Source: an uncultured Pelagibacteraceae bacterium
GTDB lineage: Bacteria > Pseudomonadota > Alphaproteobacteria > Pelagibacterales > Pelagibacteraceae
Assembly: GCA_902538915.1 (NCBI GenBank)
Contig: CACBGZ010000002.1
Location: 1 to 64,000, forward strand
Direction: 5' to 3'
Length of the DNA: 64,000 nt
The position numbers and the translations under genes were made by a program. Below, piece after piece: positions 23,648 through 36,260 of this stretch (position 1 is its first letter; each line of letters begins with the position of its first letter). Under the pieces are notes generated by a model. That model saw nothing but the letters and a program-made list of their open reading frames with translations, was not told the DNA's origin and made no database searches.

Positions 23648-23733
23648 TGGTGCCCTCGGCCAGACTCGAACTGGCACTCCGCAAGCGGCAAGGATTTTAA
23701 GTCCTTTGTGTCTACCAATTTCACCACGAGGGC
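23648..23733 (-). tRNA. tRNA-Leu (anticodon TAA), island integration target
   Basis: A complete 86-base class II tRNA: acceptor GCCCTCG/CGAGGGC, anticodon loop CTTAAAA (anticodon TAA), long variable arm, T-arm AGTTCGAGTCT and encoded CCA. Its 5' half, from the anticodon loop through the acceptor and the upstream leader, is repeated at 25518 and 29165. This marks it as the attachment site of two tandem modules on its 5' side. The gene is regenerated intact by the incoming module's own copy. Confidence 0.97.
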
Positions 23734-23802
23734 ATTAATGAATTTCATGAGTATTTATGCTAATATTTATAATTGAACAAGATGAATAAGTAAATTTTTT
23801 TT
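23695..23802. repeat. att copy 1: tRNA-Leu 5' half plus promoter block
   Basis: The first of three direct copies of a roughly 108-bp block. It contains the anticodon loop (TTTTAAG), the rest of the tRNA 5' half to 23734, and 68 more bases covering the likely tRNA promoter. It differs from copy 2 (25518-25625) at one position, near 23782. Identity between copies begins at 23695; upstream of it this copy reads AAGGA (anticodon stem) whereas copies 2 and 3 read CGCC or TGCC. Confidence 0.93.
23752..23780 (-). promoter_or_regulatory. likely promoter of tRNA-Leu
   Basis: On the minus strand TTGTTC (23780-23775) is followed after 17 bases by TAAATA (23757-23752). This places a start about 12 bases before the tRNA. 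The same sequence is present in both other att copies, so each integrated module brings a promoter able to drive the rebuilt tRNA. The boxes match sigma-70 consensus only moderately. Confidence 0.5.
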
Positions 23803-23816
23803 AATTTATCTCTCTA

Positions 23817-23837
23817 GGTACTAGTTTAGTACTAGTT
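23817..23837. repeat. module A left copy of 21-bp direct repeat
   Basis: Two GTACTAGTT units 11 bases apart (starting 23818 and 23829). An identical 21-bp copy is at 25373-25393, so the repeat brackets the two cargo genes. The unit start is 123 bases from the crossover loop. Module B has GCTTCTAGTT units at the equivalent places. Confidence 0.85.
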
Positions 23838-23854
23838 ATCCTATAAAATCCTAT
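23838..23854. repeat. inverted end motif of module A, left
   Basis: ATCCTATAAAATCCTAT. The reverse complement of the motif at 25451-25467 matches it at 16 of 17 positions. The two therefore form an inverted pair near the ends of the module. It abuts the 21-bp repeat directly and lies 2 bases from the lipoprotein stop codon. Confidence 0.75.
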
Positions 23855-23856
23855 AA

Positions 23857-24405
23857 TTATTTTTGTCTACAGTTTGTGTGAACAATCTTACTACTACCAA
23901 CTCTTTGCGAAACACAATACATTCTAGGAGTTGAAGTATTTGCTGTTGTACCATATTTAGCATCAACAATAGCATTTAATATTTCATCACCATGATTGTA
24001 TAAAACCCAGGCAGCAGATTCCCAAAATTTCTTTAAAAAACCGTCCTTGTTAGTTTTTTCAATTTTTTCTCCATTTGAATTTTCATAACTAAATGTAAGT
24101 TCAATATTTTCTTTTTCTTTAGCCTCTTTTTGTAAAATATATTCTTGTACAGAAACATAGTCAGAAATAGATTTATCAGATTTGTTTAAAAGATATTGCT
24201 TATGAATATCATTCCCTATTTTAAAATGTTTTGCCATGCATTTGTGCCACGGAGAACCCCAGCTTTTATCTGCCTCGCTAACACCAATATTTCTACAAGA
24301 GTTTGCAGCAAATGCTCTTGTTTTGTCTCCAGAATAATCCATCTCTTTTCCAAAACAACCAGATAAAAGAAAAGCTAAAAGAGTAAAAATTGTAATTTTT
24401 TTCAT
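23857..24405 (-). CDS. predicted lipoprotein of unknown function (module A cargo)
   Basis: A 182-residue protein with a type II signal peptide: KKITIFTLLAFLLSGC, lipobox LSGC with Cys at residue 17, so it should be anchored in a membrane facing the periplasm or surface. The mature part has four more cysteines (in NSCRNIG, WHKCMAKH, MYCVSQ and TNCRQK), allowing disulfides. I do not recognise the family. It starts 8 bases after the DUF4268 stop. It is also flanked by 15-bp direct repeats (23840-23854, 24413-24427), so it may be a separately gained cassette. In a defence module a surface lipoprotein could act in phage exclusion, which is conjecture. Confidence 0.7.
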   Translation of the reverse strand: MKKITIFTLLAFLLSGCFGKEMDYSGDKTRAFAANSCRNIGVSEADKSWGSPWHKCMAKHFKIGNDIHKQYLLNKSDKSISDYVSVQEYILQKEAKEKENIELTFSYENSNGEKIEKTNKDGFLKKFWESAAWVLYNHGDEILNAIVDAKYGTTANTSTPRMYCVSQRVGSSKIVHTNCRQK

Positions 24406-24412
24406 TAGATAA

Positions 24413-24427
24413 CCTATAAAATCCTAT
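24413..24427. repeat. 15-bp direct repeat between module A genes
   Basis: CCTATAAAATCCTAT, identical to 23840-23854 in the same orientation. It overlaps the last codons and stop of the DUF4268 gene. The lipoprotein gene is thereby bracketed by two copies. Confidence 0.7.
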
Positions 24428-25355
24428 CTAATTCTTTTATCGGACCTTTGAAAGCTTTTTCTAATTTAATCAAATGATCTACTAAAAAATTGTGAATATC
24501 TTCCCATGTTTCTTCATCTTGAAAACCTCCTAAATCAGATTTAAATGTTATTCTACAAGCCCTAGAGTCATCTAGTCTTTTCCATTCTAATTCATTACCA
24601 AAATCTTTTTCAATAGATGTTTTATGCTTTTCCAAATGATTATAAATTTTTAAATTTGCCTCTTTACCTTCTTCTTTTCCTCTATCAATGTATATTTCTA
24701 CTTGACCAGATCTATTCATTGCAGCAACAAGATAATTAACCCCTCTTACACCAGCACTTACACCCATATAATTTCTGCCTTTTGGAGCTGTATTACTGTA
24801 GATATTACTTTTTTGTTTTAATTTTTCATAAAAAGCTGACCAAAAATTAAATTTAATTTTCTCTTTTTCCGAGTCTTCTTCCTTAATTTTTCCAACCTTT
24901 GTAATATTTTCATCTGGTCCTGATAATAAAAAAAATTGAGCTCCAGGCTCGCTATCTTTGATTTTAAAAACTTGAATTTTTACTAAAAAAAATAAACATG
25001 TTTTTACATTGGCATTGAGCCATTCAATTGCTCTGTGGTGCTCTGGTTTAACATCTTCTACTATCCAAATAGCTTTTTTTGTATTTTCCACATTACTTAT
25101 ATAGGTTAATAACTTACCTAAATGATCGTGATCAGATTTTTCAAATTGATTTTCAATTATTACTTTTCCCTGATCATCCTCAGCTACTATATCTACTTTA
25201 AAAGTATCTAATTTTTTTTCACTTTCAGGATCTTGAATATTTAATCCTAGATCTTCATTAAGTAATGCAATGTTCTGGACTAACCATGGTGTAAAATCTC
25301 TATCTTCTGTCTTCCAGATATCTCTTATTTTTTGTTTTTTAAGTCTTGAAACCAT
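24414..25355 (-). CDS. DUF4268 domain protein with PD-(D/E)XK nuclease-like fold (module A cargo)
   Basis: A 313-residue protein. The N-terminal part has the pattern D55 ... E68-N-Q70 (FKVDIV, then VIIENQ) followed by SDHDHLGKLLTY. This is the PD-(D/E)XK nuclease-like core with glutamine in place of the usual lysine that characterises these proteins. The C-terminal half (NFWSAFYEKLKQKS to the end) matches the DUF4268 domain, often found in mobile and defence loci. A role in restriction or DNA repair is likely but not shown; no methyltransferase partner is adjacent. The start lies 18 bases from a 21-bp module repeat that could carry its promoter or operator. Confidence 0.75.
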   Translation of the reverse strand: MVSRLKKQKIRDIWKTEDRDFTPWLVQNIALLNEDLGLNIQDPESEKKLDTFKVDIVAEDDQGKVIIENQFEKSDHDHLGKLLTYISNVENTKKAIWIVEDVKPEHHRAIEWLNANVKTCLFFLVKIQVFKIKDSEPGAQFFLLSGPDENITKVGKIKEEDSEKEKIKFNFWSAFYEKLKQKSNIYSNTAPKGRNYMGVSAGVRGVNYLVAAMNRSGQVEIYIDRGKEEGKEANLKIYNHLEKHKTSIEKDFGNELEWKRLDDSRACRITFKSDLGGFQDEETWEDIHNFLVDHLIKLEKAFKGPIKELDRIL

Positions 25356-25517
25356 AAATATTTATCTCTTAAGGTACTAGTTTAGTACTAGTTTGACAAA
25401 AATAATTATTAAGAATTTTAAATAAAATAATCTTTATATTTTCAGAACTTATAGGATTTTAAAGGATTTAGACTGCTCTGGACTACTATGGACTGACTTT
25501 TACTTCTATCCCTCGCC
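25356..25517. other. module A right arm
   Basis: A gene-free stretch. It holds the 21-bp repeat, an AT-rich segment, ATAGGATTTTAAAGGAT at 25451-25467 (inverted partner of 23838-23854), and three GACT units at 25471, 25481 and 25491. The GACT units are spaced one helical turn apart and the last is 27 bases from the crossover loop. It resembles a recombinase arm or accessory-protein region. Confidence 0.65.
25373..25393. repeat. module A right copy of 21-bp direct repeat
   Basis: Perfect copy of 23817-23837. Its first GTACTAGTT unit starts at 25374, 144 bases before the crossover loop of att copy 2. On the minus strand it lies just upstream of the DUF4268 gene, overlapping the region expected for its promoter. 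Confidence 0.85.
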
Positions 25518-25625
25518 TTTTAAGTCCTTTGTGTCTACCAATTTCACCACGAGGGCATTAATGAATTTCATGAGTATTTATGCTAATATTTATAATTGAA
25601 CAAGATTAATAAGTAAATTTTTTTT
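25518..25625. repeat. att copy 2: partial tRNA-Leu plus promoter block
   Basis: Direct copy of 23695-23802 with a single mismatch. It contains only the tRNA 5' half, so it is not a functional tRNA. It forms the junction between modules A and B. Upstream of the loop it reads CTCGCC instead of the anticodon stem. Confidence 0.93.
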
Positions 25626-25638
25626 ATTTTATCTATCT

Positions 25639-25660
25639 GGCTTCTAGTTAGCTTCTAGTT
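25639..25660. repeat. module B left tandem repeat
   Basis: Two GCTTCTAGTT units 11 bases apart, starting 25640 and 25651; the first lies 122 bases from the crossover loop, against 123 in module A. It is directly followed by ATCCTACAAAATCCTAG (25661-25677), the counterpart of the module A end motif; the stop codon of the small gene (25674-25676) lies inside this motif. Confidence 0.75.
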
Positions 25661-25673
25661 ATCCTACAAAATC

Positions 25674-26012
25674 CTAGAGCCAATCACTACACCAGGTAAA
25701 TACATCTGCTTCAAATTTTATATCATTAAATTTAAGCAGTTGTTTGTATCTTTCTAATCTATGCTTTTTATCAAACTTAGTGAGGAAATTGTATATTTTA
25801 TCATAATTTAATCCCTTCAGATCTGTTTTTTTTATATCTACATATTCTTCATAATCTAAACCACATATAGAAAATTTTTTTTTAGGATCAATATGTTCTG
25901 AGTAGCTAATGGTGTCTTTACTCTCTTTTAATATATCATAATAATGAGCCACTTCATTATTTCTCTCAAAAAGATAATCTTTTCTGAAATCAAACAGTTC
26001 AAGTTGTTGCAT
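25674..26012 (-). CDS. small hypothetical protein with sliding-clamp-like motif (module B cargo)
   Basis: With the ATG at 26012 the product has 112 residues and begins MQQLELFDFRKDYLFERN. A TTG start at 26051 would add 13 residues, but the ATG is more credible. Residues 3-7, QLELF, fit the bacterial beta-clamp-binding consensus (QL[SD]LF) at an exposed N-terminus. The rest is charged and soluble with no recognised domain (SICGLDYEEYVDIKKTDL in the middle). It lies downstream of the large restriction-modification gene by about 100 bases, so it could be a partner, an anti-host factor or a replication-targeting protein. Function unknown. Confidence 0.6.
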   Translation of the reverse strand: MQQLELFDFRKDYLFERNNEVAHYYDILKESKDTISYSEHIDPKKKFSICGLDYEEYVDIKKTDLKGLNYDKIYNFLTKFDKKHRLERYKQLLKFNDIKFEADVFTWCSDWL

Positions 26013-26112
26013 ATATTTGGAATTGTTAAAGTTAGAAATAAACTTTAACAATAATTAATATAATTAGCAAAAATGGCAGAAGTTTGGTTGATCAATCAAA
26101 ATATTAAAAAAT

Positions 26113-28992
26113 TTACAAAAGGTTATTATTAAATATTTCATCTACAAATTGTAAAGCTTCCTCATGATTTTTAAACTTAAAAAACTTTTCTTTCATTTTT
26201 TTACTAATTAATTGTCTGATTTCTATTTCTGGATAAGGGATTTTGAAACTCTTCAGTGTAGGTTGGTTAATACCACCCTGACCTCCTTTGGTTGATGCGT
26301 AATTAATATATTTTCTAAAGTTTGATGAATACAAGTATGCAAATGTATACCAATAATCTAATTCCGGTTTTAGTCTCAATATAAATACATGTTCATTGAC
26401 AATAGCTTTTTGCTGTAAGTTATTATGCACTAAAATTGTTTTACCCGACCTAGCTCCATCTTTTGTAATTAAAATGTCATTTTTTTTAATAGTCCATTTA
26501 GCTGGACAAGTTGAAAAGTATTCTTCACTTACAAATTCTTTTGATGATAAATCAAATTCACCCCCTTCACCAAGATGTCCTCCACCAATAGACAATACAC
26601 CTTTTTCTATTCTACCAGTGCCTCCTTTTGGTCTTTTACCAGATATCAAATCATCGAGAATAAATTCTTTTAGAGGTATAAAATCGCAATTAAAATTAGG
26701 TGTTAAATCCTCTTCCAAAAAGGGATTAAAAGTACCATCTTTAGAAACAAATTTTTTAAAGTCTAGATATAGTAAAATATCTTTAAATTTATCATTTTTT
26801 GATTTTGAGTTTTTAAAATATTTTTCTAAATTTTCACCTAAAAGTATTTTTTTTACATAATAAGAAATATAATTCTCATCATTAGTTTTTTCTTCATTGA
26901 ATAAAATACCATCATTAAAAGTTTGAATGCCCTCAAATCCACGCCTTTCAGAAAACTCATAACCAAGTAATTTTTTTTGTTTTTTTGATTTTTTGTCATC
27001 AGGTGGATCCAAATCAGCAATCAAAATTTTATCATTATTGGGTTTATTTTTTCTGATCATAAACAAAATCATTGTTCTCATAGGGGTTTTTCTGAATGCT
27101 TTGTCCCCAAGTTTTATCAACGCTTTAATTTCAAAATTCTCTAAAAGAAACTCTCTGGTATTAGAATTAATTTCATCAGTTGTAGTTAATAAGGACCTTG
27201 GTACAATTACCCCAATAATTCCATTTTCCTTTAAAAGCTGTTTTGCCCTCTCTAAAAATAAACATTCAATTTTATCACTAGTAGGGCTTAAATATTTATA
27301 TAATGAAAAATTATTTTCCCCATCGATAATTCTATTTTTAAAATTATCAACTGAGTATGGGGGATTTGCTACAATTATATCAAACACTTGATTATTTTGA
27401 TCGCTCTTTTCAGATTTTAATAATTTTTTATAATCATGGTTATAGAATGGAAGTAAACCATCGGTGCAAAAAGTATTTGCATCACCATCTCCATTGAGAA
27501 ATGAATTTACTTTTGTTGTTTTTGCTAGTCTGTAATCTTTTTCAATTGCATAAACATATTCATTGCACCATTTATAATTCTTTTTATTCTGAGTGAAATT
27601 ATCAACAGCAGTTTTTCCTCCCTCAATCTCTTTAATGTTTAACTCATCAATTACTTTTTGAATTAATGAAATCATTTCAGTAATAAAATGACCACTACCT
27701 GATGCATAATCAATTACATAAGGTAAGAAATTTATATCCTTATTTTTATTCTTATTTTTAATAATATTTTCAATAGGAATACTATTACAAATAAAAGATG
27801 CTAAAGGTATTGGCGTAAAAAATTGTCCAGATTCTTGTTTAATCCCTGTATCTAAAATTTTTTCAAAAAAGTCACCAAGATATTGATGCTTTGTACTGTA
27901 TTTAAGTTTATAAGTTTGTAAAAGTTGAACAATTGATTTTACAATAAATGCATTTTCTTCAAAAGTTTTTTTGTTAAAAATTTCTTTGAATTCAAATTCA
28001 TTAGAAACAATTGATGTATTTTCATTTAATTTAAGGTACTTTTTGAAGCTATTTAAATTCTTAAAATCATCTTCAATTAAATTATTTTTACTATCAAAAA
28101 TATCAACATTTAAATAATTTTTTGTGCCTTTTATATAAAGATCTTTTAATCTTTTAATAAACGAAGTGTAGTCGTCACTTTCTAACCACTGAAAATCTAA
28201 AGATTTTTTAAAGTTTTGATCCTCATCAAAAATTTTACAAATAAATAAATTAAAAATCTTATTAAATGCATTTGTTTTATCAGAAACAATATTCCTCCTT
28301 AATATTTCAGCAAATTGGTTAAAAATGTAACCACCATCATCTGAATTTATATCCCTTAAATCACTATAGTCTAATCTTTCTATACCTAGTTCGTAAGGTT
28401 TTTTACCCTCTTCAAATAAACCTTTAGATATAAAAATTTTGTCCCATTTTTCGTATAAATCTTTCAAATTTTTTGAGGATGACATTTCTTTGGTTGGAAG
28501 AAAATAATCGTATTGTCTTTGAATAGTGTCTTTTTCAAATTTTGATGTATAAATAGAAACAATCTTAGTATCTTTTTCATTTAAAAAATAACTGAGTAAT
28601 TGGTTTTTCTTCCAATCAGTTGTTGTTTTTTCTTTTGAATTATTAAACTCTTTACCAAAAGTCTTACAATCAATTAAGGCCCAAGATTTTTTTTTATTGT
28701 CTAAAATTTGTACATCACAATAACCAGCGCCAGCATTATGCCCAAGAGAAAAAGGTTTTTCTAAAACTATATTCTCACTGTTATAGCCAATATTTAGTAG
28801 TTTAATTACAAATTCTAAAACAACTAAATTTTCCTGTTTTTCTTTTAAATCATTTATTGTCTTTCGGTGAATTTTTATATCACCATAATCAATTACGAAA
28901 TCTTCTGAAACATATATTTTATTTTTTCCTTTTGAGAATAAATAAGAATTCTCTTTTTCTTTAAAATTTAATAAAGATAAATATTTTTTCAT
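26113..28992 (-). CDS. single-chain restriction-modification enzyme (nuclease + N6-adenine methylase + specificity domain)
   Basis: A 959-residue protein that appears to combine all three restriction functions. Residues about 60-110 form a PD-(D/E)XK-like nuclease (E60, D93 in YCDVQIL, D108-C-K110). Residues about 370-560 are an N6-adenine methyltransferase: GQFFTP (389-394), motif I DYASGSGHF (428-436) and catalytic NPPY (543-546). Residues about 765-945 resemble one HsdS-type target-recognition domain (FIPLKEFI, WTIKKNDILITKDGARSGK, GGINQPTLKSFKIP). This is a type IIG / fused type I-like layout that cuts unmodified DNA and protects its own. No separate hsdR, M or S gene is nearby. It starts 29 bases from the module repeat pair. 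Confidence 0.85.
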   Translation of the reverse strand: MKKYLSLLNFKEKENSYLFSKGKNKIYVSEDFVIDYGDIKIHRKTINDLKEKQENLVVLEFVIKLLNIGYNSENIVLEKPFSLGHNAGAGYCDVQILDNKKKSWALIDCKTFGKEFNNSKEKTTTDWKKNQLLSYFLNEKDTKIVSIYTSKFEKDTIQRQYDYFLPTKEMSSSKNLKDLYEKWDKIFISKGLFEEGKKPYELGIERLDYSDLRDINSDDGGYIFNQFAEILRRNIVSDKTNAFNKIFNLFICKIFDEDQNFKKSLDFQWLESDDYTSFIKRLKDLYIKGTKNYLNVDIFDSKNNLIEDDFKNLNSFKKYLKLNENTSIVSNEFEFKEIFNKKTFEENAFIVKSIVQLLQTYKLKYSTKHQYLGDFFEKILDTGIKQESGQFFTPIPLASFICNSIPIENIIKNKNKNKDINFLPYVIDYASGSGHFITEMISLIQKVIDELNIKEIEGGKTAVDNFTQNKKNYKWCNEYVYAIEKDYRLAKTTKVNSFLNGDGDANTFCTDGLLPFYNHDYKKLLKSEKSDQNNQVFDIIVANPPYSVDNFKNRIIDGENNFSLYKYLSPTSDKIECLFLERAKQLLKENGIIGVIVPRSLLTTTDEINSNTREFLLENFEIKALIKLGDKAFRKTPMRTMILFMIRKNKPNNDKILIADLDPPDDKKSKKQKKLLGYEFSERRGFEGIQTFNDGILFNEEKTNDENYISYYVKKILLGENLEKYFKNSKSKNDKFKDILLYLDFKKFVSKDGTFNPFLEEDLTPNFNCDFIPLKEFILDDLISGKRPKGGTGRIEKGVLSIGGGHLGEGGEFDLSSKEFVSEEYFSTCPAKWTIKKNDILITKDGARSGKTILVHNNLQQKAIVNEHVFILRLKPELDYWYTFAYLYSSNFRKYINYASTKGGQGGINQPTLKSFKIPYPEIEIRQLISKKMKEKFFKFKNHEEALQFVDEIFNNNLL

Positions 28993-29164
28993 TTATTAAC
29001 CATATATTTTTATCCCTACAGCTTCTAGTGTACTTCTAGTTTGAGAGAATTTACTAACCATATTTTTCAATAAAAATAAGTGTGAGTTTTTAAAAGTGTA
29101 AGATTTTGTGATTTTAAGATTGTATGAGACTACCAGAGACTAACTAAATTGTGAATCCTCTGCC
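28993..29164. other. module B right arm
   Basis: Gene-free. It holds the repeat pair GCTTCTAGT / ACTTCTAGT (29021-29042, first unit 144 bases from the loop, as in module A). GATTTT at 29102 is 63 bases from the loop, as in module A. GAGACTA units at 29126 and 29136 are 10 bases apart, with GAC 27 bases from the loop, as in module A. The sequence between these signals differs from module A. Confidence 0.65.
29021..29042. repeat. module B right tandem repeat
   Basis: GCTTCTAGT followed 11 bases later by ACTTCTAGTTT. It is an imperfect partner of 25639-25660 and brackets the module B cargo. Confidence 0.7.
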
Positions 29165-29271
29165 TTTTAAGTCCTTTGTGTCTACCAATTTCACCACGAG
29201 GGCATCTGTTATTTTCATGAGTGTTTATGCTAATATTTATAATTTAACAAGATGAATAAGTAAATTTTTTT
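29165..29271. repeat. att copy 3: displaced chromosomal tRNA-Leu 5' half
   Basis: The outermost copy. The 40 bases of the tRNA half are identical to copies 1 and 2, while the leader differs at several places just beyond the acceptor (TCTGTTAT instead of TTAATGAA). No tandem repeat or ATCC motif follows it, so it is probably the original chromosomal end of attB. From 29272 to the next gene nothing recognisable is seen. Confidence 0.88.
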
Positions 29272-29297: not shown

Positions 29298-29990
29298 TTA
29301 TAAATTGTAAACTTTTGCCAATATCTCTCTTTTTTCATAATCATTAACTCGACCCAAAATATCAAAAAAAATAATTTTTAACGCATTCTTATAATGTTGA
29401 GATTTTTTTTCATTTCCTACATTGGTAAAATTAAATGAAGAAAGTTTAATTTCTGACTCATTAGGTATTGAAGAAATTTTAATAAATGCTTTTCCATTCA
29501 TTATATGACTACTCAAAATTAAAAAATTTATATCCCTTACCTTTTTAGGCCAGACTTTGTCAGGCGTCTTACTATTAAGCTTTTCTGCTATACCAATATT
29601 GTCCTGAAAAGTGACTTCAATTTTTTCTTTTTTTTCAATCTCAGACGCAATTTTTTTTTCAATAATTTCTAAATAGAATTCTGGGTTTTCTATTTTTAAC
29701 TCATTAATTATAACGAGACTTTTAAAAAGATATGAATTCAAGTCTAAATTAAAAAAAATTTTATCTGCTTTAAAAGTGTTATTATAAAATTTAGTATTAT
29801 TATTACGTACTTTTAGTCCATATACAGTTATTGAACCTGGAAAATTATATTTAAATTCATCAAAATTTATCTCTCTTTCTAACCAATTAGATAATTTATA
29901 ATAAACATATTTCTCTACAATTTTTTCATTAAAAGATATTGTTAAAATTAAGAAAAACACAGTAACAAAAAACCAGTTTATTTTTTTCAT
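29298..29990 (-). CDS. AsmA/DUF748-like envelope protein (short)
   Basis: A 230-residue protein with one N-terminal hydrophobic anchor (residues about 6-20) followed by a beta-rich stretch. The pattern in FKYNFPGSITVYGLKVRNNN and ADKIFFNLDLNSYLFKSLVIINELKIENPEFYLE resembles the N-terminal repeat of AsmA/TamB/DUF748 proteins, which move or organise lipids across the envelope. It is much shorter than full AsmA proteins. It is a single gene right beside the island boundary. Assignment is by pattern only. Confidence 0.5.
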   Translation of the reverse strand: MKKINWFFVTVFFLILTISFNEKIVEKYVYYKLSNWLEREINFDEFKYNFPGSITVYGLKVRNNNTKFYNNTFKADKIFFNLDLNSYLFKSLVIINELKIENPEFYLEIIEKKIASEIEKKEKIEVTFQDNIGIAEKLNSKTPDKVWPKKVRDINFLILSSHIMNGKAFIKISSIPNESEIKLSSFNFTNVGNEKKSQHYKNALKIIFFDILGRVNDYEKREILAKVYNL

Positions 29991-30170
29991 ACCTAATAAT
30001 TTAAATTATAACAGAATGAATTTTATAAATATTTTTCACAACAATTAATCATTAATTCCTCATAAAAATTAGAGAAATGAGTGTTAAAATTTAAAACATT
30101 ACAGTTGAAATGTCTAGGTAGGACAAAATTCATGATGAATAAATATCTCAAATAATTATGATAATATTTA

Positions 30171-30380
30171 ATGAAAAAAAATATTGTTAAATCTCACTTA
30201 AAAAAAAAGTACCAGGCAAAGCTTGCTTTATCAATCAGCCTATTTATTGTGCTTTTAACTGCAACTGGATACCTCTTTAATTCTAAAGAAGTAATTTTTC
30301 TATTCTATATTTCTTGTTTTGTATTTTTTTACAATTTGGTAATCCAATTTTTATTAGAAAGGTTTGATATTAAATCATGA
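30171..30380 (+). CDS. small two-helix membrane protein
   Basis: A 69-residue protein with a basic N-terminus (KKNIVKSHLKKKYQ) and two hydrophobic spans (LALSISLFIVLLTATGYLF and VIFLFYISCFVFFYNLVIQFLL). No family recognised. Its stop overlaps the start of the next small gene (ATGA), so they are translationally coupled. The 180 bases upstream (29991-30170) contain nothing recognisable besides promoter-sized AT-rich sequence. Confidence 0.6.
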   Translation: MKKNIVKSHLKKKYQAKLALSISLFIVLLTATGYLFNSKEVIFLFYISCFVFFYNLVIQFLLERFDIKS

Positions 30381-30508
30381 TAAAAACACTTGTTAAATTA
30401 AAGATATTAAAATTAATACTAATTGGTGGGGTATCAACTGCCTATGTTTTTAAAAAATACTGTGATGAAAAAAATGAAGTTAAAAGTAAAAAAGAAAAAA
30501 ACTTTTAA
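30377..30508 (+). CDS. micro-protein (43 residues), coupled to upstream membrane protein
   Basis: Reads MIKTLVKLKILKLILIGG and ends in a charged tail (EVKSKKEKNF). One hydrophobic segment is followed by a lysine-rich end. The ATG shares the ATGA junction with the preceding gene, and its stop overlaps the convergent gene's stop by 4 bases. Overlap at both ends supports a real gene. It was too short for standard length cut-offs. Confidence 0.5.
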   Translation: MIKTLVKLKILKLILIGGVSTAYVFKKYCDEKNEVKSKKEKNF

Positions 30509-30894
30509 ATTAAAAGAAATACCAAACAAATCATTTGGACAAAATTAATTACTACAGATATAAAGTGTGAATATTTAAATTTCTTATCCTGTTTTTCGTC
30601 TCTATATTTATTAATTAATGGCATTAATAAATAGTTTGATGTGGCGAATAAGATTGTGATCAATAAGATTAGATAAAAATCGATACCTAATTTACTTAAA
30701 AATAAAAATGTTAGTAGGACAACAAAGCTAATCGCTAGATTAACATTATAGTAAAAAGGAAATATTCGTCTAATAAACTTTCGAGCATTATCTTCATCTA
30801 GAGTAGTGAATACTACTGGAGCAATCACAAACGAGAAAAATAACATTATCCCTAAAATCATTGCTATTAAATAAATACTAAGTTGTTCAATCAT
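30505..30894 (-). CDS. DUF4149-family membrane protein
   Basis: A 129-residue protein with four hydrophobic segments. The motif FSFVIAPVVFTTLDEDNARKFIRRIFPFYY is characteristic of the DUF4149 / TMEM205-like family, small inner-membrane proteins of unknown function widespread in proteobacteria. Full length, with no sign of truncation. Confidence 0.75.
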   Translation of the reverse strand: MIEQLSIYLIAMILGIMLFFSFVIAPVVFTTLDEDNARKFIRRIFPFYYNVNLAISFVVLLTFLFLSKLGIDFYLILLITILFATSNYLLMPLINKYRDEKQDKKFKYSHFISVVINFVQMICLVFLLI

Positions 30895-30897
30895 AAT

Positions 30898-30978
30898 TTA
30901 ATTTTCAATTGAATTTTCTTCTTTCATTATTATTAGTCTTCCATGATGAGCAGTATTAAATCTTTTAATCTCTATCAT
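30898..30978 (-). CDS. possible 26-residue micro-ORF
   Basis: Reads MIEIKRFNTAHHGRLIIMK and ends EENSIEN. It overlaps the 3' end of the DUF6492-like gene by 14 bases and stops 4 bases before the DUF4149 start. In a genome with almost no empty space it may be a real peptide or a coupling ORF. There is no other support. Confidence 0.25.
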   Translation of the reverse strand: MIEIKRFNTAHHGRLIIMKEENSIEN

Positions 30979-31945
30979 AAACTTTTTCTCTCCAAATAGA
31001 TCTTTTTTCCTCAAGGTGGATATTCTCATCTTTTTTCTTTGTGTGCCTGATATTCGTTTCAAATGATAAAGAAGAAGGAAGTAGCTGATAATTTTTATCT
31101 ATAAAATTTAATATAGACGAATAGGACGGATAAAAGTCTTTTTTTTCGTCAAAATTACTAAATTTCTTGTATTTTCTTGAAAATAAACCATTGCCATCAT
31201 CATAAAATCTTTCTGTGGTTAAACCATATTTTTCATAAGGATAATAATTTAGATCATCTTTATTTATATGATTTACCCAACTGGCATAAGTCCAATATTC
31301 ACCAAAAGAACCATATATATTTGCAGCTTTTATTACTAACTCAATCCAATTTTGATCTGATTTGAAATGATCTTTAAATTTTAACTTAAGACTTTTTAAA
31401 TACTTTTTATTAAAAACCATATGATGTGAAGTAAATGTTCCTCTGACGTCCTCAACAGGATTTATTTCCAATATATTGGTAATTAAATTTTTCCATGAAT
31501 TTAAAATATCTTGATTTCCATATGATTTATCCTGTAATAAAGCAAACTTTTCCTTTTTTTTATCAAGTATAGGCCATGATCTTACTGGTAATAAATCTGC
31601 ATCCCATATTAAAAAAACATCGTCTAATTCATCTATAATATCACTAGCTCCTAATTTAATAATCTGTTGATACAACCATCCAGGAGAGTAATTAGGTTTG
31701 TTTTGAGTAATTTGAGAAACGATATCTTTTTTTGTTAAACCATATTTATTTAAAAAAAAATTATCCTCATCCAGCAATGTTAAATTTTCAATATCCCAAG
31801 AATTAGATTTATCTTTAAAAATTTTTATCTCATGATCCGATGTTACGACATAAATTTGTTTAGGTTTATATTTTTGAGAAATTCCCTCGAGAACTGATCT
31901 TGTACTCCAATTCACATGGTGAATTGGAATCACAAATTGGTACAT
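30965..31945 (-). CDS. DUF6492-like / glycosyltransferase-like protein
   Basis: A 326-residue soluble protein. The N-terminus FVIPIHHVNWSTRSVLEGI and IYVVTSDHEIKIF look like a nucleotide-sugar fold. WLYQQIIKLGASDIIDELDDVFLIWDADLLPVRSW carries an acidic WDAD motif in the position of a GT-A metal-binding DXD. This matches the DUF6492 type. It starts 4 bases after the sugar-phosphate cyclase, so the two form an operon and may make a glycosylated cyclitol or surface sugar. Confidence 0.6.
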   Translation of the reverse strand: MYQFVIPIHHVNWSTRSVLEGISQKYKPKQIYVVTSDHEIKIFKDKSNSWDIENLTLLDEDNFFLNKYGLTKKDIVSQITQNKPNYSPGWLYQQIIKLGASDIIDELDDVFLIWDADLLPVRSWPILDKKKEKFALLQDKSYGNQDILNSWKNLITNILEINPVEDVRGTFTSHHMVFNKKYLKSLKLKFKDHFKSDQNWIELVIKAANIYGSFGEYWTYASWVNHINKDDLNYYPYEKYGLTTERFYDDGNGLFSRKYKKFSNFDEKKDFYPSYSSILNFIDKNYQLLPSSLSFETNIRHTKKKDENIHLEEKRSIWREKVYDRD

Positions 31946-31949
31946 TTTA

Positions 31950-33575
31950 TTAATTTAATTTCGCTTCTTTTTCTATATTTTCATCTGCTTTAAAAACAGT
32001 GACTGGATCTTCAAGACCTGCGTCTGAACAAAGAGGTTCAACACCCAATCCTTTTCTAGGGTATTTTAAAACTACTTGTTTATATTCTTGTATGATTTCT
32101 TTTAATTCAGGTTTTGTTAAATCATTAATATATTTACATTTTCCGATAGCAATTGGAACTGGAATAGCTAGGTTGCCTCCTCTTTTTTGAAGTATCTTAT
32201 CAAAACCTTCATTCATGCATTTTTCGTCTAACAATATGTCATGCCATAAACTTAATTCATATTCACTAAATAATTTTAAAATTCTATGCAAATCTTTTTC
32301 ACTTAACCAGCCTCTTTTATAAGACATAAAAGAGCTTAAGGTCATTTCAACACTAATGGCATGACCATGTAATAATCCTGCTTTAAGTTCAAAGTTTGCA
32401 CTTAATCCATGGCCAAATGCATGATCTCTGATGCTGTGAACTTCGTGTAAATTATCATATTCACTCTCAACATAGCTCTTTAAAGACAGTCCAATAATTT
32501 TTTTTGATTTAGATACTATTTCATCTTGAGAATTACAATTTATTGTACCAAAGTGAGTTTTCATCAAATCAAGTCCTGTATCCTCAAGTAAAGTAAATAA
32601 TTCTTCGTCTCTAATAACTGCCATTTTATGAATTTCCGCAATCCCGTGTCTAACCCAAGAAGTTTTTAAACTTTTAAAGAATGATCGATCAGATATATTT
32701 AGCACTGGAGCATGAAAAGAGCCTAAGAGGTTTTTAAATCCACCAGCATCACAACATGATCTTGGACTGGGTCCACTATCTATTGCACTAACAACTGATG
32801 TTGATAACATTATATACGGAGTACTTCGATGATAAATAGATGCAGCAAAAGCTCCAATATCTCCAATAACTCCTCCTCCAACTATTAAAATAGGTTCATT
32901 TCTATTTACACCTAATTTTCTAAAATCCTCTACTATTTTTTCCACATTTTTAATATGCTTATCAACCTCCATAGCTCTATAAACCAATTTCTCTAATATA
33001 ATAGAATGATGATTAAAATAATTTTCGATTTTTAATCCATAGTTATCCTCAATATTTTGATCTATTAAACAAACACATCTTCCAAATGATTTGTAATTAT
33101 CTCTTAAGAGGTGATTATCGACATTTAAGGTGTCCTCTTCCACTTTAATTGAAGTAAATGTATTCAAGTTCATTGTTGCTTCTATTTGTTGATAATCATT
33201 CGAGCTAACAACATGTCCATTTGAATTTCTATAACTGGAAGTTGGATACAAAGCTAAGGGATTTTTCTGCTCATAATTTAAAATAAGCTGTTTATAAAAA
33301 TCATGTTTGGAGCTATTAAGTAAATTTGAAATTAATTTAGAGTTTCCAAACTCTGTATCGCTAATACTTGAAGATAAAAAATTTAAATTTTTTGATAAAT
33401 TTTTATTAAAGGGTAAAACTAAATGTGAAAGTTCAAGAAAAAATCTTTCAGTTGTTAAATTTAGAGAAGTTTTTAAAATTCTTAAATGAGGTAGTGAGGA
33501 AATAGCATTTAATTTTGAAAACTCATTTGCTATTCTTTCATCATAGGGATTTATTTCTGTAAGATCTATCAACAA
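31950..33575 (-). CDS. sugar-phosphate cyclase (DHQ-synthase / EEVS-like) with N-terminal extension
   Basis: A 541-residue protein. Residues about 140-500 form a dehydroquinate-synthase-like cyclase: GGGVIGD at 233-239, KNLLGSFHAP near 281-290, and candidate metal ligands in GIAEIHKM, RDHAFGHG and LLHGHAISVEM. SFHAP favours the sedoheptulose-7-phosphate cyclases (EEVS group) over true AroB, yet DSGPSPR replaces the usual VGGK/VGIK segment, so the substrate is uncertain. Residues 1-140 match nothing I know. The assigned start is TTG without a clear Shine-Dalgarno. The frame stays open and protein-like for 23 more codons upstream (ENFVNNNYFENLL) with no ATG/GTG, so the start is doubtful. Confidence 0.7.
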   Translation of the reverse strand: MLIDLTEINPYDERIANEFSKLNAISSLPHLRILKTSLNLTTERFFLELSHLVLPFNKNLSKNLNFLSSSISDTEFGNSKLISNLLNSSKHDFYKQLILNYEQKNPLALYPTSSYRNSNGHVVSSNDYQQIEATMNLNTFTSIKVEEDTLNVDNHLLRDNYKSFGRCVCLIDQNIEDNYGLKIENYFNHHSIILEKLVYRAMEVDKHIKNVEKIVEDFRKLGVNRNEPILIVGGGVIGDIGAFAASIYHRSTPYIMLSTSVVSAIDSGPSPRSCCDAGGFKNLLGSFHAPVLNISDRSFFKSLKTSWVRHGIAEIHKMAVIRDEELFTLLEDTGLDLMKTHFGTINCNSQDEIVSKSKKIIGLSLKSYVESEYDNLHEVHSIRDHAFGHGLSANFELKAGLLHGHAISVEMTLSSFMSYKRGWLSEKDLHRILKLFSEYELSLWHDILLDEKCMNEGFDKILQKRGGNLAIPVPIAIGKCKYINDLTKPELKEIIQEYKQVVLKYPRKGLGVEPLCSDAGLEDPVTVFKADENIEKEAKLN

Positions 33576-33817: not shown

Positions 33818-35011
33818 TTACTCTTTTACACTACCAGCTGTTAGACCACTGACTAAATATTTTTCAAAATATATGAAAATAAAAAGTACAGGTAAAGTTA
33901 CAATTACTGAACCTGCCATTAAGTATTGACGCGGTGTTTCTGCATCCCCGCTTAGATATTGAATGGCTCTTGATAAGGTAAATGATTTAGGACTATCCAA
34001 AAACATCAAAGAAAAAAGGAATTCATTCCAAGCAATCATAAATACATAAAGTGCAACGGATGCAATAGCTGGCAAACTTAAAGGAATAATAATCTTTAAA
34101 ATTATGCCAAACCAATTTTGACCATCCATAATACCGGCATCTTCAATTTCTTTTGGAATACTTTTAAAATAACCTTGCAACATATAAATAGCAACCGGCA
34201 AGGTTGTGGCCGTATAAACAATCAATAGACCAAAGATTGAGTTTCTTAATCCCAGTTGACTAAACACAGTATATAAAGGGATCACTAAAACAATAGCTGG
34301 AAACATGTAAATAATTAAGATCGAAGTTGATAAAAAGTTTTTGCCAAAGAAATTTAATCTAGCAACAGCATAAGCCGCTGGTATTGCAAATAACAATGTG
34401 ACAATAACAGTTCCGATAGAAACTACTGAGCTAATTAAGATGTATCTGCCAAAATTATAAGTTTCAAAGATTACAAAATAAGATTTGAATAACTCAGTTA
34501 AACTTTTTGTGAAATCAAGACTAAAGTCTAAAGGATTAACTAATAAAGCTATTTGAGTTTTAAAACTTGTAACCAACATAATGTAAAACGGAAATAAGAT
34601 TACAAATGCAAAGAAAACAATGCCAAATAAAGTGATAAAATCAAAAATAATTTTTTCAGATATAAAATCTTCCTTTAGAGATTGGATACTGTATTTCTTG
34701 AGTTTGTTGGTAAAAAATAAAGTAATTAAGAAAACTCCAAGAATATACCATAATGGAGATGCTTCATTTAAGTAAAAATATAAAATTGAAGATATAAATG
34801 ATAATGAAAAAATCTTTATTAAGTGATTAATCTTATTACCAATTAAGACAAATGCTAAAGATAATAGAATACCAATCAAAAAAATAGGAGTGACGTTTAG
34901 ATTGGTAAAACTTAAACCTTGCAGTGTAGCCATGATTTTCCAAATTGACAAAATACATGTCAGAAAAAAAGATGAAATGATCAAAAAAATTGCAAGAGAT
35001 TTAAATCTCAT
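33818..35011 (-). CDS. ABC sugar/osmolyte importer, inner-membrane permease 2 (MalG-like)
   Basis: A 397-residue permease from the ATG at 35011 (MRFKSLAIFLII); a TTG at 35026 is possible. The C-terminal 260 residues are a MalG-type domain with EAA loop (EIEDAGIMDGQNWFGIILKIIIPLSLP). The N-terminus has about four extra hydrophobic segments (to residue about 115) not found in MalG. It overlaps the upstream permease by 11 bases and belongs to the binding-protein operon. Substrate inferred from the glucosylglycerate genes across the divergent promoter. Confidence 0.85.
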   Translation of the reverse strand: MRFKSLAIFLIISSFFLTCILSIWKIMATLQGLSFTNLNVTPIFLIGILLSLAFVLIGNKINHLIKIFSLSFISSILYFYLNEASPLWYILGVFLITLFFTNKLKKYSIQSLKEDFISEKIIFDFITLFGIVFFAFVILFPFYIMLVTSFKTQIALLVNPLDFSLDFTKSLTELFKSYFVIFETYNFGRYILISSVVSIGTVIVTLLFAIPAAYAVARLNFFGKNFLSTSILIIYMFPAIVLVIPLYTVFSQLGLRNSIFGLLIVYTATTLPVAIYMLQGYFKSIPKEIEDAGIMDGQNWFGIILKIIIPLSLPAIASVALYVFMIAWNEFLFSLMFLDSPKSFTLSRAIQYLSGDAETPRQYLMAGSVIVTLPVLFIFIYFEKYLVSGLTAGSVKE

Positions 35012-36260
35012 TAGCCCTCTTTCCAATTAATCTGAAATAAATAATCATAAAACTTAGAAGTAACATGACAATAACTATTGAAACAGCAGAGCCCATCCCA
35101 ATATCTGATACTGCAAAGCCTTGTTGATAAACATTGATAGGTAAAGTTCTTGTACCTGATGCCCCACCGGTTAATAAAAAAATATCTTCAAATTTATTAA
35201 AGTTCCAAATAAACCTAATCATGAATAAAATTGAGATGATGGCTGTAATTTGAGGCAGTGTAATATGGATAAATTTTTGAATTGGACTTGCTCCATCAAC
35301 TTCCGCTGCTTCATACAAACTTTGTGGTATTGCTTGTAATCTTGCTAAAATAAAGAGAAAAGCGAGTGGGAAATAGCGCCAAATTTCAAAAAAGATAACT
35401 GTCGTTAATGCCAACCTTAATTTAAATTCAAATCCTAAAATACTCATTGTTATGTATTTTTGGCCTAATAAATTTATTGGTTGTTCAATAATATTAAAAT
35501 TCACTAATAATGCATTTAAAGTTCCACTATTAGGATCCAATAATAAAGTCCAAGTATAAGCTAAAGCAACTACAGGGCCTACATAAGGAAAAAGTAAAAT
35601 ACCTCGCATATAGGTTCGACCTTGAATGTTTTGATTAACTAATTGTGCTGCCAAAATTCCAAAGATAATTGCACCTACTGTGCCAAAAAAAGTGAAGTAA
35701 AATGTTGTTAAAAGTAATTCAACAAAATTATTTTCATAAAAAACTTTTTTAAAATTTTCTAAAGTAAAATTTGTAGTCAGTAGTGGATTATCTGCTTTCC
35801 CACTTAAAATTGGTTTTTGAGATTTAATTATTTTTTTGTCAATTATTTCACCATTGTTACTCTGAATAATTATCTCAAAATTTTCTCTATATTTTGCCTG
35901 CCAATTGCCAAAATTACAAACGATCTTTTTGGATTGAAAATTACATCTTGGATCAAGATTAATTGGTGAAACATTTGTAGGAAGTTTATCTTGAAACTGT
36001 ACATTTCTTATTTCTTGAATTAACGAACTATTTCGTAATTTATAAATAATTTTTAATTCTGATTGATTTTCTGGAATTGATTTAACAATTTTCTTTGCTC
36101 TAGGTTCTGGAATTCTAATATCTTTTAATTCAATGTCTTTGAAACTAATCCAAACATTGGCAAATATGGGAAATAATACAATAGCAAAAACTAATAGAAC
36201 TGCAGGTAAAACTAAAGTGAAAGCAGTTCTTTTTTCTAATTTTGATAATGAAACACTCAT
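35001..36260 (-). CDS. ABC sugar/osmolyte importer, inner-membrane permease 1 (MalF-like) with periplasmic insert
   Basis: A 419-residue permease. TM1 (residues about 12-34) is followed by about 125 residues of soluble sequence. This includes LPTNVSPINLDPRCNF ... KKIVCNFGNWQAKYRENFEIII, which resembles a DUF11-type Ig-like beta-sandwich. The standard permease domain with EAA loop (YEAAEVDGASPIQKFIHITLPQ) follows. The insert is placed like the P2 domain of E. coli MalF and should face the periplasmic binding protein. The gene follows a terminator-like hairpin after the binding-protein gene. Confidence 0.85.
   Translation of the reverse strand: MSVSLSKLEKRTAFTLVLPAVLLVFAIVLFPIFANVWISFKDIELKDIRIPEPRAKKIVKSIPENQSELKIIYKLRNSSLIQEIRNVQFQDKLPTNVSPINLDPRCNFQSKKIVCNFGNWQAKYRENFEIIIQSNNGEIIDKKIIKSQKPILSGKADNPLLTTNFTLENFKKVFYENNFVELLLTTFYFTFFGTVGAIIFGILAAQLVNQNIQGRTYMRGILLFPYVGPVVALAYTWTLLLDPNSGTLNALLVNFNIIEQPINLLGQKYITMSILGFEFKLRLALTTVIFFEIWRYFPLAFLFILARLQAIPQSLYEAAEVDGASPIQKFIHITLPQITAIISILFMIRFIWNFNKFEDIFLLTGGASGTRTLPINVYQQGFAVSDIGMGSAVSIVIVMLLLSFMIIYFRLIGKRANEI

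What the first reader, a model, noticed from the sequence alone, without database searches (positions are those of the whole stretch)
25374..29164. Right arms of both modules have identical motif spacing despite different sequence
Counting back from the crossover loop, the tandem pair starts at 144 bases in both modules, GATTTT at 63 bases in both, and the last GAC repeat at 27 bases in both. The intervening DNA is largely unrelated. Fixed spacing with drifting sequence is the mark of a protein-DNA assembly such as an attachment-site arm with recombinase and bending-protein sites.
Basis: seen in the sequence. Interest (0 to 1): 0.8.

Follow-up and report, generated by a model that had tools for sequence, protein, structure and literature searches.

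The report
SAR11 integrase-less tRNA-inserting defence cassettes
In the ocean bacterium SAR11, small gene cassettes, often carrying anti-phage genes, sit in a row inside one tRNA gene; each has a complete phage-type attachment site but no integrase, and small phage-satellite-like elements with the matching site do carry one, so the cassettes probably borrow it to move.

Summary
The "crossover loop" is the anticodon loop (TTTTAAG) of tRNA-Leu(UAA) in a SAR11 genome. Two modules (M1 23695-25517, M2 25518-29164) are inserted there in tandem, each bringing a new tRNA 5' half and upstream region. The right-arm pair starts at -144 in M1 but -143 in M2; GAC at -27 and -37 is exact in both; the GATTTT match at -63 is coincidental. 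I collected 96 such elements. GAC sits at -47/-37/-27 in 84-93 of 96. The CTAG-type 11-bp arm pair sits at +126 (left) and -138 to -143 (right), although its sequence varies widely. Left and right arms of one element match far better than shuffled arms. 93 of 96 lack an integrase. About 7.8-kb elements with the same attP encode a 545-aa tyrosine integrase plus a primase, and arm sequence tracks the integrase N-terminal domain. Precise empty sites exist, and near-identical modules occur in genomes whose flanks are only 78% identical. Best reading: integrase-less, often defence-bearing cassettes mobilised in trans by satellite integrases, with arm sequence as the matching code. Trans-mobilisation itself is inferred, not shown.

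The parts
23648..23733 (-). intact tRNA-Leu(UAA) gene, the target; its 5' half (23695-23733) and upstream region are supplied by module M1
   Evidence: ARAGORN, Rfam RF00005; 39-nt 5' half repeated at 25518 and 29165
23695..25517 (.). Module M1 (1,823 bp), core to core, no integrase
   Evidence: core copies; arms; integrase check; ORFs
25518..29164 (.). Module M2 (3,647 bp), core to core, no integrase
23695..23701 (.). core/crossover TTTTAAG (anticodon loop), first copy, in the intact tRNA
25518..25556 (-). core plus displaced tRNA-Leu 5' half, second copy (M1/M2 junction)
29165..29203 (-). core plus displaced tRNA-Leu 5' half, third copy (M2/chromosome junction)
23818..23839 (+). M1 left arm: GTACTAGTTTA GTACTAGTTAT (11-bp tandem pair), CTAG at core +126
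25374..25395 (+). M1 right arm: GTACTAGTTTA GTACTAGTTTG, starts 144 bp before core
25640..25661 (+). M2 left arm: GCTTCTAGTTA x2, CTAG at core +126
29022..29043 (+). M2 right arm: CTTCTAGTGTA CTTCTAGTTTG, starts 143 bp before core
23839..23854 (+). M1 left box TCCTATAAAATCCTAT (function unknown, module-specific)
25450..25469 (-). M1 right box, inverted copy (TATAGGATTTTAAAGGATTT on + strand)
25662..25677 (+). M2 left box TCCTACAAAATCCTAG
29099..29116 (-). M2 right box, degenerate (TAAGATTTTGTGATTTTA on + strand)
25470..25497 (+). M1 three 10-bp-spaced GAC(T) repeats at -47, -37, -27 (candidate directionality-factor sites; inference)
29117..29144 (+). M2 10-bp-spaced GA(C/T) repeats at -47, -37, -27
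23752..23780 (-). promoter-like TTGTTC-N17-TAAATA ahead of the tRNA, carried in by the module (inference from sequence)
   Evidence: sequence
23857..24405 (-). M1 cargo ORF, 182 aa, no family
24414..25355 (-). M1 cargo ORF, 313 aa, DUF4268 / PADLOC candidate defence PDC-S11
   Evidence: Pfam E 2.8e-33; PADLOC E 2.9e-105
25674..26051 (-). M2 cargo ORF, 125 aa, no family
26113..28992 (-). M2 cargo ORF, 959 aa, type IIG-like restriction-methyltransferase with specificity domain
   Evidence: Pfam N6_Mtase/Eco57I/Methylase_S; PADLOC REase_MTase_IIG E 7.5e-138

Best explanation
Each module is an integrase-less integrative cassette with a complete bipartite attP: right arm, 10-bp GACT repeats, core (anticodon loop plus tRNA-Leu 5' half), upstream region, left arm. 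Recombination at TTTTAAG splits the host tRNA-Leu gene, gives it the 5' half and upstream region brought by the element, and displaces the old half to the far end. This leaves the site usable again, so modules stack in tandem (shown by sequence and by empty sites). The paired 11-bp repeats are arm-type sites read by the N-terminal domain of a tyrosine integrase (inferred from covariation and position). The integrase is supplied in trans by small satellite-like elements of about 7.8 kb that use the same site (integrase, primase/helicase), and the arm sequence decides which satellite can mobilise which cassette (inferred). The cargo includes many restriction or other defence genes.
For: Empty sites: the right flank of single-copy tRNA genomes aligns contiguously from the core to the flank beyond the last core of occupied genomes, with 2.2-11 kb inserted. 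Spacing and arms in 96 elements. Left and right arms of one element match 19.2/22 against 14.1 permuted, max 15.1 in 20,000 permutations, 77 elements after removing near-duplicate cargo starts. Only 3 of 96 encode an integrase. Satellites L229, L241 and L197 have the same attP and an integrase of about 545-550 aa with R373, K400, R485, H508, Y518 (L212 numbering) invariant in the family alignment. The M2 right end ACTACCAGAGACTAACTAAATTGTGAATCCTCTGCC is shared letter for letter with satellite L229. 30 of 93 integrase-less modules share the 7-mer arm of a known satellite. Arm similarity tracks the integrase N-terminus and not the catalytic domain: partial r 0.54 against -0.04, Mantel r 0.76 for the N-terminus; the N-terminus of L216 resembles L229, its remainder resembles L212. 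Recent transfer: module L044/L160 is 99.9% identical in cargo and nearly identical in attP while the tRNA-side flank is 77.8% identical. In L085/L160 the cargo is 100% identical but both arms changed together, with breakpoints at the arms, as expected if the two arms are contiguous in a circular form.
Against: No circular form of an integrase-less module and no recombination were observed. No satellite with the exact arms of M1 (GTACTAG) or M2 (CTTCTAG) was found. The window genome (79% complete) holds only one PF00589 protein, on another contig, and it was not recovered by the satellite-integrase search. Satellites lack the ATCCTATAAAATCCTAT box that most modules have, so modules are not simply satellites with genes deleted. 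The N-terminal arm-binding fold is only weakly supported (model mean pLDDT 69; PF13356 E 0.041 in one of six). The arm-integrase correlation rests on 11 integrases, some using other target sites.
Confidence: 0.75

Rival explanations
1. The modules are remnants: satellites or prophages that lost integrase and replication genes, kept as fixed defence islands between dead att sites, moving at most in cis with an adjacent active element (accretion, CIME-like).
For: 93 of 96 lack an integrase; modules sit in tandem next to integrase-bearing elements in L230 and L218; some modules have fused or lost cores.
Against: Both arms, cores and spacing are kept intact and matched across very diverse cargo, including 925-bp modules; near-identical modules occur in genomes with about 78% identical flanks; modules share a box that satellites lack.
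Confidence: 0.17
2. Modules spread by ordinary homologous recombination between repeated tRNA halves or conserved flanks, not by site-specific recombination.
For: The repeated 39-nt half and upstream region give homology; cargo-arm exchanges with breakpoints at the arms exist.
Against: Insertion is exact at the anticodon loop; transferred modules are 99.9% identical while adjacent flanks are 77.8%; conserved paired arm sites at near-fixed distance would be unexplained.
Confidence: 0.05
3. The mobilising integrase comes from temperate pelagiphages of the HTVC105P type that use the same tRNA-Leu.
For: HTVC105P and MedDCM-OCT-S35-C6 carry the identical 42-nt tRNA-Leu 5' half next to an integrase gene.
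Against: Their sequence around the core has no 11-bp arm pairs at these distances and no GACT repeats, and the integrase is only 297 aa against about 545 aa in the satellites.
Confidence: 0.03

Closest known systems
attP of tyrosine-integrase phages, e.g. mycobacteriophage cluster K1 (PMC3203893)
   Same: Two pairs of 11-bp arm-type sites flank a core in an RNA gene; arm sequence differs between close relatives in step with the integrase N-terminus.
   Different: There the integrase is next to attP; here 93 of 96 elements have the attP without an integrase, with more than 20 left-arm 7-mers.
P4-like satellites / PICI / PICMI (PMC8628076, PMC10803314; abstracts seen)
   Same: The integrase-bearing L197 and L229 are about 7.8-kb integrative elements with integrase, small unassigned ORFs and primase/helicase.
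   Different: Helper phage dependence is untested; the cargo cassettes lack even integrase and primase.
Tycheposons of Prochlorococcus and Methylophilaceae (PMC10872708)
   Same: tRNA-associated cargo islands in streamlined marine bacteria with a tyrosine recombinase in the system.
   Different: Tycheposons are described as 4-200 kb with their own recombinase; these cassettes have a median of 2.5 kb and none.
CIMEs and tandem ssrA genomic islands of Dehalococcoides (PMC3146451)
   Same: Elements with attL/attR but no integrase, accreted in tandem at one RNA gene.
   Different: Dehalococcoides islands use serine recombinases; paired arms with a sequence code and trans use by many helpers are not described in the passages read.
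Additive flexible genomic islands with tRNA-fragment repeats (PMC10872708, PMC7771536)
   Same: Gene cassettes ending in direct repeats of part of a tRNA gene in marine or freshwater streamlined bacteria.
   Different: No attP arms, helper or integrase specificity appear in the passages read.
CALIN cassette arrays (PMC11389934)
   Same: Integrase-less cassettes in tandem that an integrase encoded elsewhere could mobilise.
   Different: Integron cassettes use attC sites and IntI; these use a full bipartite attP at a tRNA.

Membership tests
lambda-type tyrosine-integrase attachment site | short identity core between element and chromosome, precise insertion | tested here: met
   TTTTAAG plus 39-nt tRNA half at every junction; empty sites align across
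lambda-type tyrosine-integrase attachment site | arm-type repeat sites on both sides of the core | tested here: met
   11-bp tandem pairs at near-fixed distance on both sides
lambda-type tyrosine-integrase attachment site | cognate integrase encoded beside attP | tested here: not met
   absent in 93 of 96, including M1 and M2; present in 3 and in partial satellites
lambda-type tyrosine-integrase attachment site | IHF-type bending sites in the arms | tested here: not met
   no exact WATCAANNNNTTR in the scanned arm stretches of 96 elements; HU or divergent IHF not testable here
P4-like/PICI satellite (applied to L229, L197) | integrase plus primase/helicase, no structural phage genes | tested here: inconclusive
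   integrase and primase found; the small ORFs scanned match no family, so absence of structural genes is not fully shown
P4-like/PICI satellite (applied to L229, L197) | dependence on a helper phage for transfer | not testable with these tools
   needs infection experiments
P4-like/PICI satellite (applied to M1, M2) | integrase and replication module | tested here: not met
   only DUF4268, restriction-methyltransferase and unknown ORFs
CIME (cis-mobilisable element) | attL and attR present, no recombination or transfer genes | tested here: met
CIME (cis-mobilisable element) | mobilised by accretion with an adjacent integrase element | not testable with these tools
   adjacency seen in L230 and L218 only
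Tycheposon | own tyrosine recombinase inside a tRNA-bounded island | tested here: not met
   no recombinase in M1, M2 or 91 further modules
Integron cassette | attC sites and IntI integrase | not tested
   not searched; the tRNA core and paired arms argue for another mechanism

The most novel reading that the evidence does not exclude
SAR11 populations share a two-tier mobile defence system: autonomous satellites diversify the arm-binding domain of their integrase together with their arm sites, and a pool of integrase-less cassettes follows by exchanging whole attP segments as circles, so that arm sequence acts as a lock-and-key code assigning cassettes to satellites. The module-specific inverted ATCCTATAAAATCCTAT boxes are a second signal (replication or packaging) that only the hitchhikers need.
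Probability: 0.35. Interest if true: 0.9.

Novelty: new variant of a known kind. Interest (0 to 1): 0.78.

Why it matters
SAR11 is among the most abundant cell types in the ocean, with a streamlined genome and few recognised mobile elements. A class of roughly 1-12 kb cassettes that reads as mobile without its own integrase would help explain how it exchanges defence genes. The arm code makes it testable which helper moves which cassette, and the diversity of arm and N-terminal-domain pairs is a natural dataset for how tyrosine integrases recognise arm sites, which is known from few model phages. At least two further target sites carry the same layout. None of the papers searched describes this system, though the library is incomplete and most subscription papers are not held.

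Tried and rejected
GATTTT at -63 as a conserved element: rejected, 3 of 96. IHF sites in the arms: none by exact consensus. Pelagiphage HTVC105P as helper: same tRNA half, different flanks. Host Xer-like recombinase as helper: most module genomes carry one PF00589 protein of about 309-325 aa, but its arm use was not tested and satellites give a better match. ATCCTATAAAATCCTAT box as a satellite signal: absent from all satellites checked and from IMG/VR at the strict pattern. The strict arm pattern finds no viral contig; the core pattern does. Excisionase/AlpA-like identity of small satellite ORFs: no family match in PHROGs or Pfam, so the GACT repeats as directionality-factor sites stay inference.
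Full report
What the site is. The window comes from a SAR11 (Pelagibacteraceae-type) genome: AT-rich, rpsL sRNA, and relatives that are all labelled Pelagibacteraceae or Pelagibacterales in the named collection. The 'crossover loop' is TTTTAAG, the anticodon loop of tRNA-Leu(UAA) at 23648-23733 on the minus strand. A 39-nt 5' half of this tRNA recurs at 25518 and 29165. The intact tRNA therefore consists of the host 3' half joined to a 5' half and upstream region carried by M1, while older 5' halves are displaced to the right, one per insertion.

Check of the observation. The right arms start at -144 (M1, 25374) and -143 (M2, 29022); GATTTT is at -63 in both; GAC is at -37 and -27 in both. Ungapped identity is 63/145 over the arm and 28/62 between the pair and the GAC zone.

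Other family members. A pattern of two CTAGT spaced by 11 bp, a gap of 100-130 and TTTTAAGTCCTT, run on 297 genomes of the family, found sites in 26 genomes, none for the reversed-pattern control, with total lengths only 150-155 although the pattern allowed a 31-bp range. Over unique cores, the left pair is at +126 in 118 of 125 and the right pair at -138 to -143. Consecutive cores gave 107 elements, of which 96 longer than 600 bp have the GAC repeats. In these, GAC is at -47, -37 and -27 in 84, 93 and 92. The arm sequence itself is diverse: CTAG, CTGG, CAAG, CGAG and CCAG forms with varied preceding bases. Of seven single-contig genomes, three (G003, G035, G043) carry two copies of the tRNA half.

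The two arms of an element belong together. Left-arm to right-arm identity within an element averages 19.2/22, against 14.1 for permuted pairs with a maximum of 15.1 in 20,000 permutations (77 elements after removing near-duplicate cargo starts). M1 has GTACTAG in both arms and M2 has CTTCTAG in both. One caveat: related elements remain in the set, so the permutation value is not a strict probability.

Integrase-bearing relatives. Four IMG/VR contigs (L197, L212, L216, L218) and genome loci L229 and L241 carry the same attP architecture with a tyrosine integrase of about 545-550 aa and a primase/helicase. L197 is 7.8 kb with the same tRNA core at both ends, consistent with a circular genome; L229 is a 7,776-bp element inserted at tRNA-Leu. 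The alignment keeps R373, K400, R485, H508 and Y518 invariant, and the predicted model, of modest confidence, matches Tn1549, XerH and lambda integrase structures. Such integrases occur in 4 of 297 family genomes and 6 of 399 genus genomes, rarer than the modules. Among the 96 elements only L197, L229 and L241 have an integrase; the other 93 do not by two profiles. The profiles were built from satellite, Xer-like and pelagiphage integrases, so an unrelated recombinase family could be missed.

Why the arms look like integrase sites. Paired 11-bp arm-type sites flanking a core, changing in step with the integrase N-terminus, are described for mycobacteriophages (PMC3203893). Here, over 11 satellite-type integrases, arm similarity correlates with N-terminal similarity (Mantel r 0.76) and, with the catalytic part held constant, partial r is 0.54, while the catalytic part adds nothing once the N-terminus is held constant (-0.04). 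L216 is 81-84% identical to L212, L218 and L197 in residues 111-330 but 46-47% in residues 1-110, where it is 74% identical to L229; its arms (TTACTAG) resemble those of L229 (TTTCTAG) and not the CCTAG arms. 30 of 93 integrase-less modules carry the same arm 7-mer as one of six satellites; no such satellite was found for M1 or M2.

Evidence for movement. Closed genomes with one tRNA copy (G017, G063) align contiguously, from the core on, to the flank beyond the last core of genomes holding 2.2, 3.9 and 11 kb insertions. Module L044/L160 is 99.9% identical in cargo and nearly identical in attP, while the tRNA-side flank is 77.8% identical and the distal flank barely aligns. L085 and L160 share cargo at 100% over 2,314 bp, yet all four arm repeats differ in the same way and the identity stops at the arms on both sides. 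In the inserted form the two arms lie 2.3 kb apart, but in a circle they are contiguous within about 290 bp, so one attP exchange in a circular form explains it; a double crossover swapping the cargo is the alternative.

Cargo. Modules have a median length of 2.5 kb and 212 cargo ORFs of at least 110 aa in 139 clusters, 194 of them on the tRNA strand (these counts include the three satellites). M1 has a DUF4268 protein matching PADLOC candidate PDC-S11, and M2 a type IIG-like restriction-methyltransferase. Across 100 cargo proteins, restriction enzymes and methyltransferases, RT-protease-type, PbeA-like and CHAT proteins occur. The share of modules with a defence gene was not counted. PADLOC names mark similarity, not tested function.

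Unexplained part. Most modules carry TCCTATAAAATCCTAT just inside the left arm and an inverted copy near -50 to -65 on the right. None of the satellites checked has it, apart from modules adjoining them. The same box marks modules at tRNA-Ser and at what looks like a coding-gene target.

How it most likely works. Shown: precise insertion at the tRNA-Leu anticodon loop, restoration of the tRNA by the incoming 5' half, tandem stacking, matched arms at near-fixed distance, absence of a recognisable integrase, and recent transfer between genomes. Inferred: arm pairs bound by the integrase N-terminus, integrase supplied in trans by satellites, GACT repeats as sites for a directionality factor, and a circular stage. 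Not shown: any recombination, helper phage, or packaging.

Novelty. Each ingredient has precedent (arm sites, satellites, CIMEs, CALIN arrays, tRNA cassettes), so I call it a new variant of a known kind. None of nine literature searches found this system described in SAR11, but the library omits most subscription journals.

Noticed in passing
L041 277-1774 (oriented with the tRNA core forward), L045 7764-9747, L252 5191-6694: A second element type at the same tRNA-Leu with arms CTACACTAGAA CTACACTAG at different distances (about +107 and -71), no GACT repeats: probably another integrase family.
   Followed up: partly
L213, L215, L241 (beyond core 8992), L251 6273, L080, L253: Arms of the TAACT/CAACT type (TGGGTAACTC, TGGGCAACTGG) near the same tRNA core; L213 and L215 integrases are 98% identical in the catalytic part and 56% in the N-terminus.
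   Followed up: partly
L267 (tRNA-Ser), L242 8644, L261, L264, L265, L268, L272: The same arm plus ATCCTATAAAATCCTAT layout occurs at tRNA-Ser and at what looks like the 5' end of a protein-coding gene; satellites L231, L239 and L240 carry a similar coding-gene segment.
   Followed up: partly
L046 12060, L036 10273, L049 10719 (oriented with the tRNA core forward): Composite modules with an internal left arm but no core between two cargo genes, suggesting arm-to-arm recombination that fused neighbours.
   Followed up: no
L218 8923-13591: A satellite with ACCCTAG arms is followed directly by a left arm of the same type and a 966-aa restriction helicase gene, so helper and cargo may share the arm code in one array; the far end was not resolved.
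   Followed up: partly
G000 contig C5 10209-10715 (L005); other genomes: Most module genomes have a single PF00589 protein of about 309-325 aa, presumably Xer-like; SAR11 may use one chromosome-dimer recombinase.
   Followed up: no
window 29298-33575: ORFs right of the last core are absent at that place in relative L036, where a 402-aa ORF of the same length as window 33818-35026 follows the core, so this stretch may be another variable insertion.
   Followed up: no
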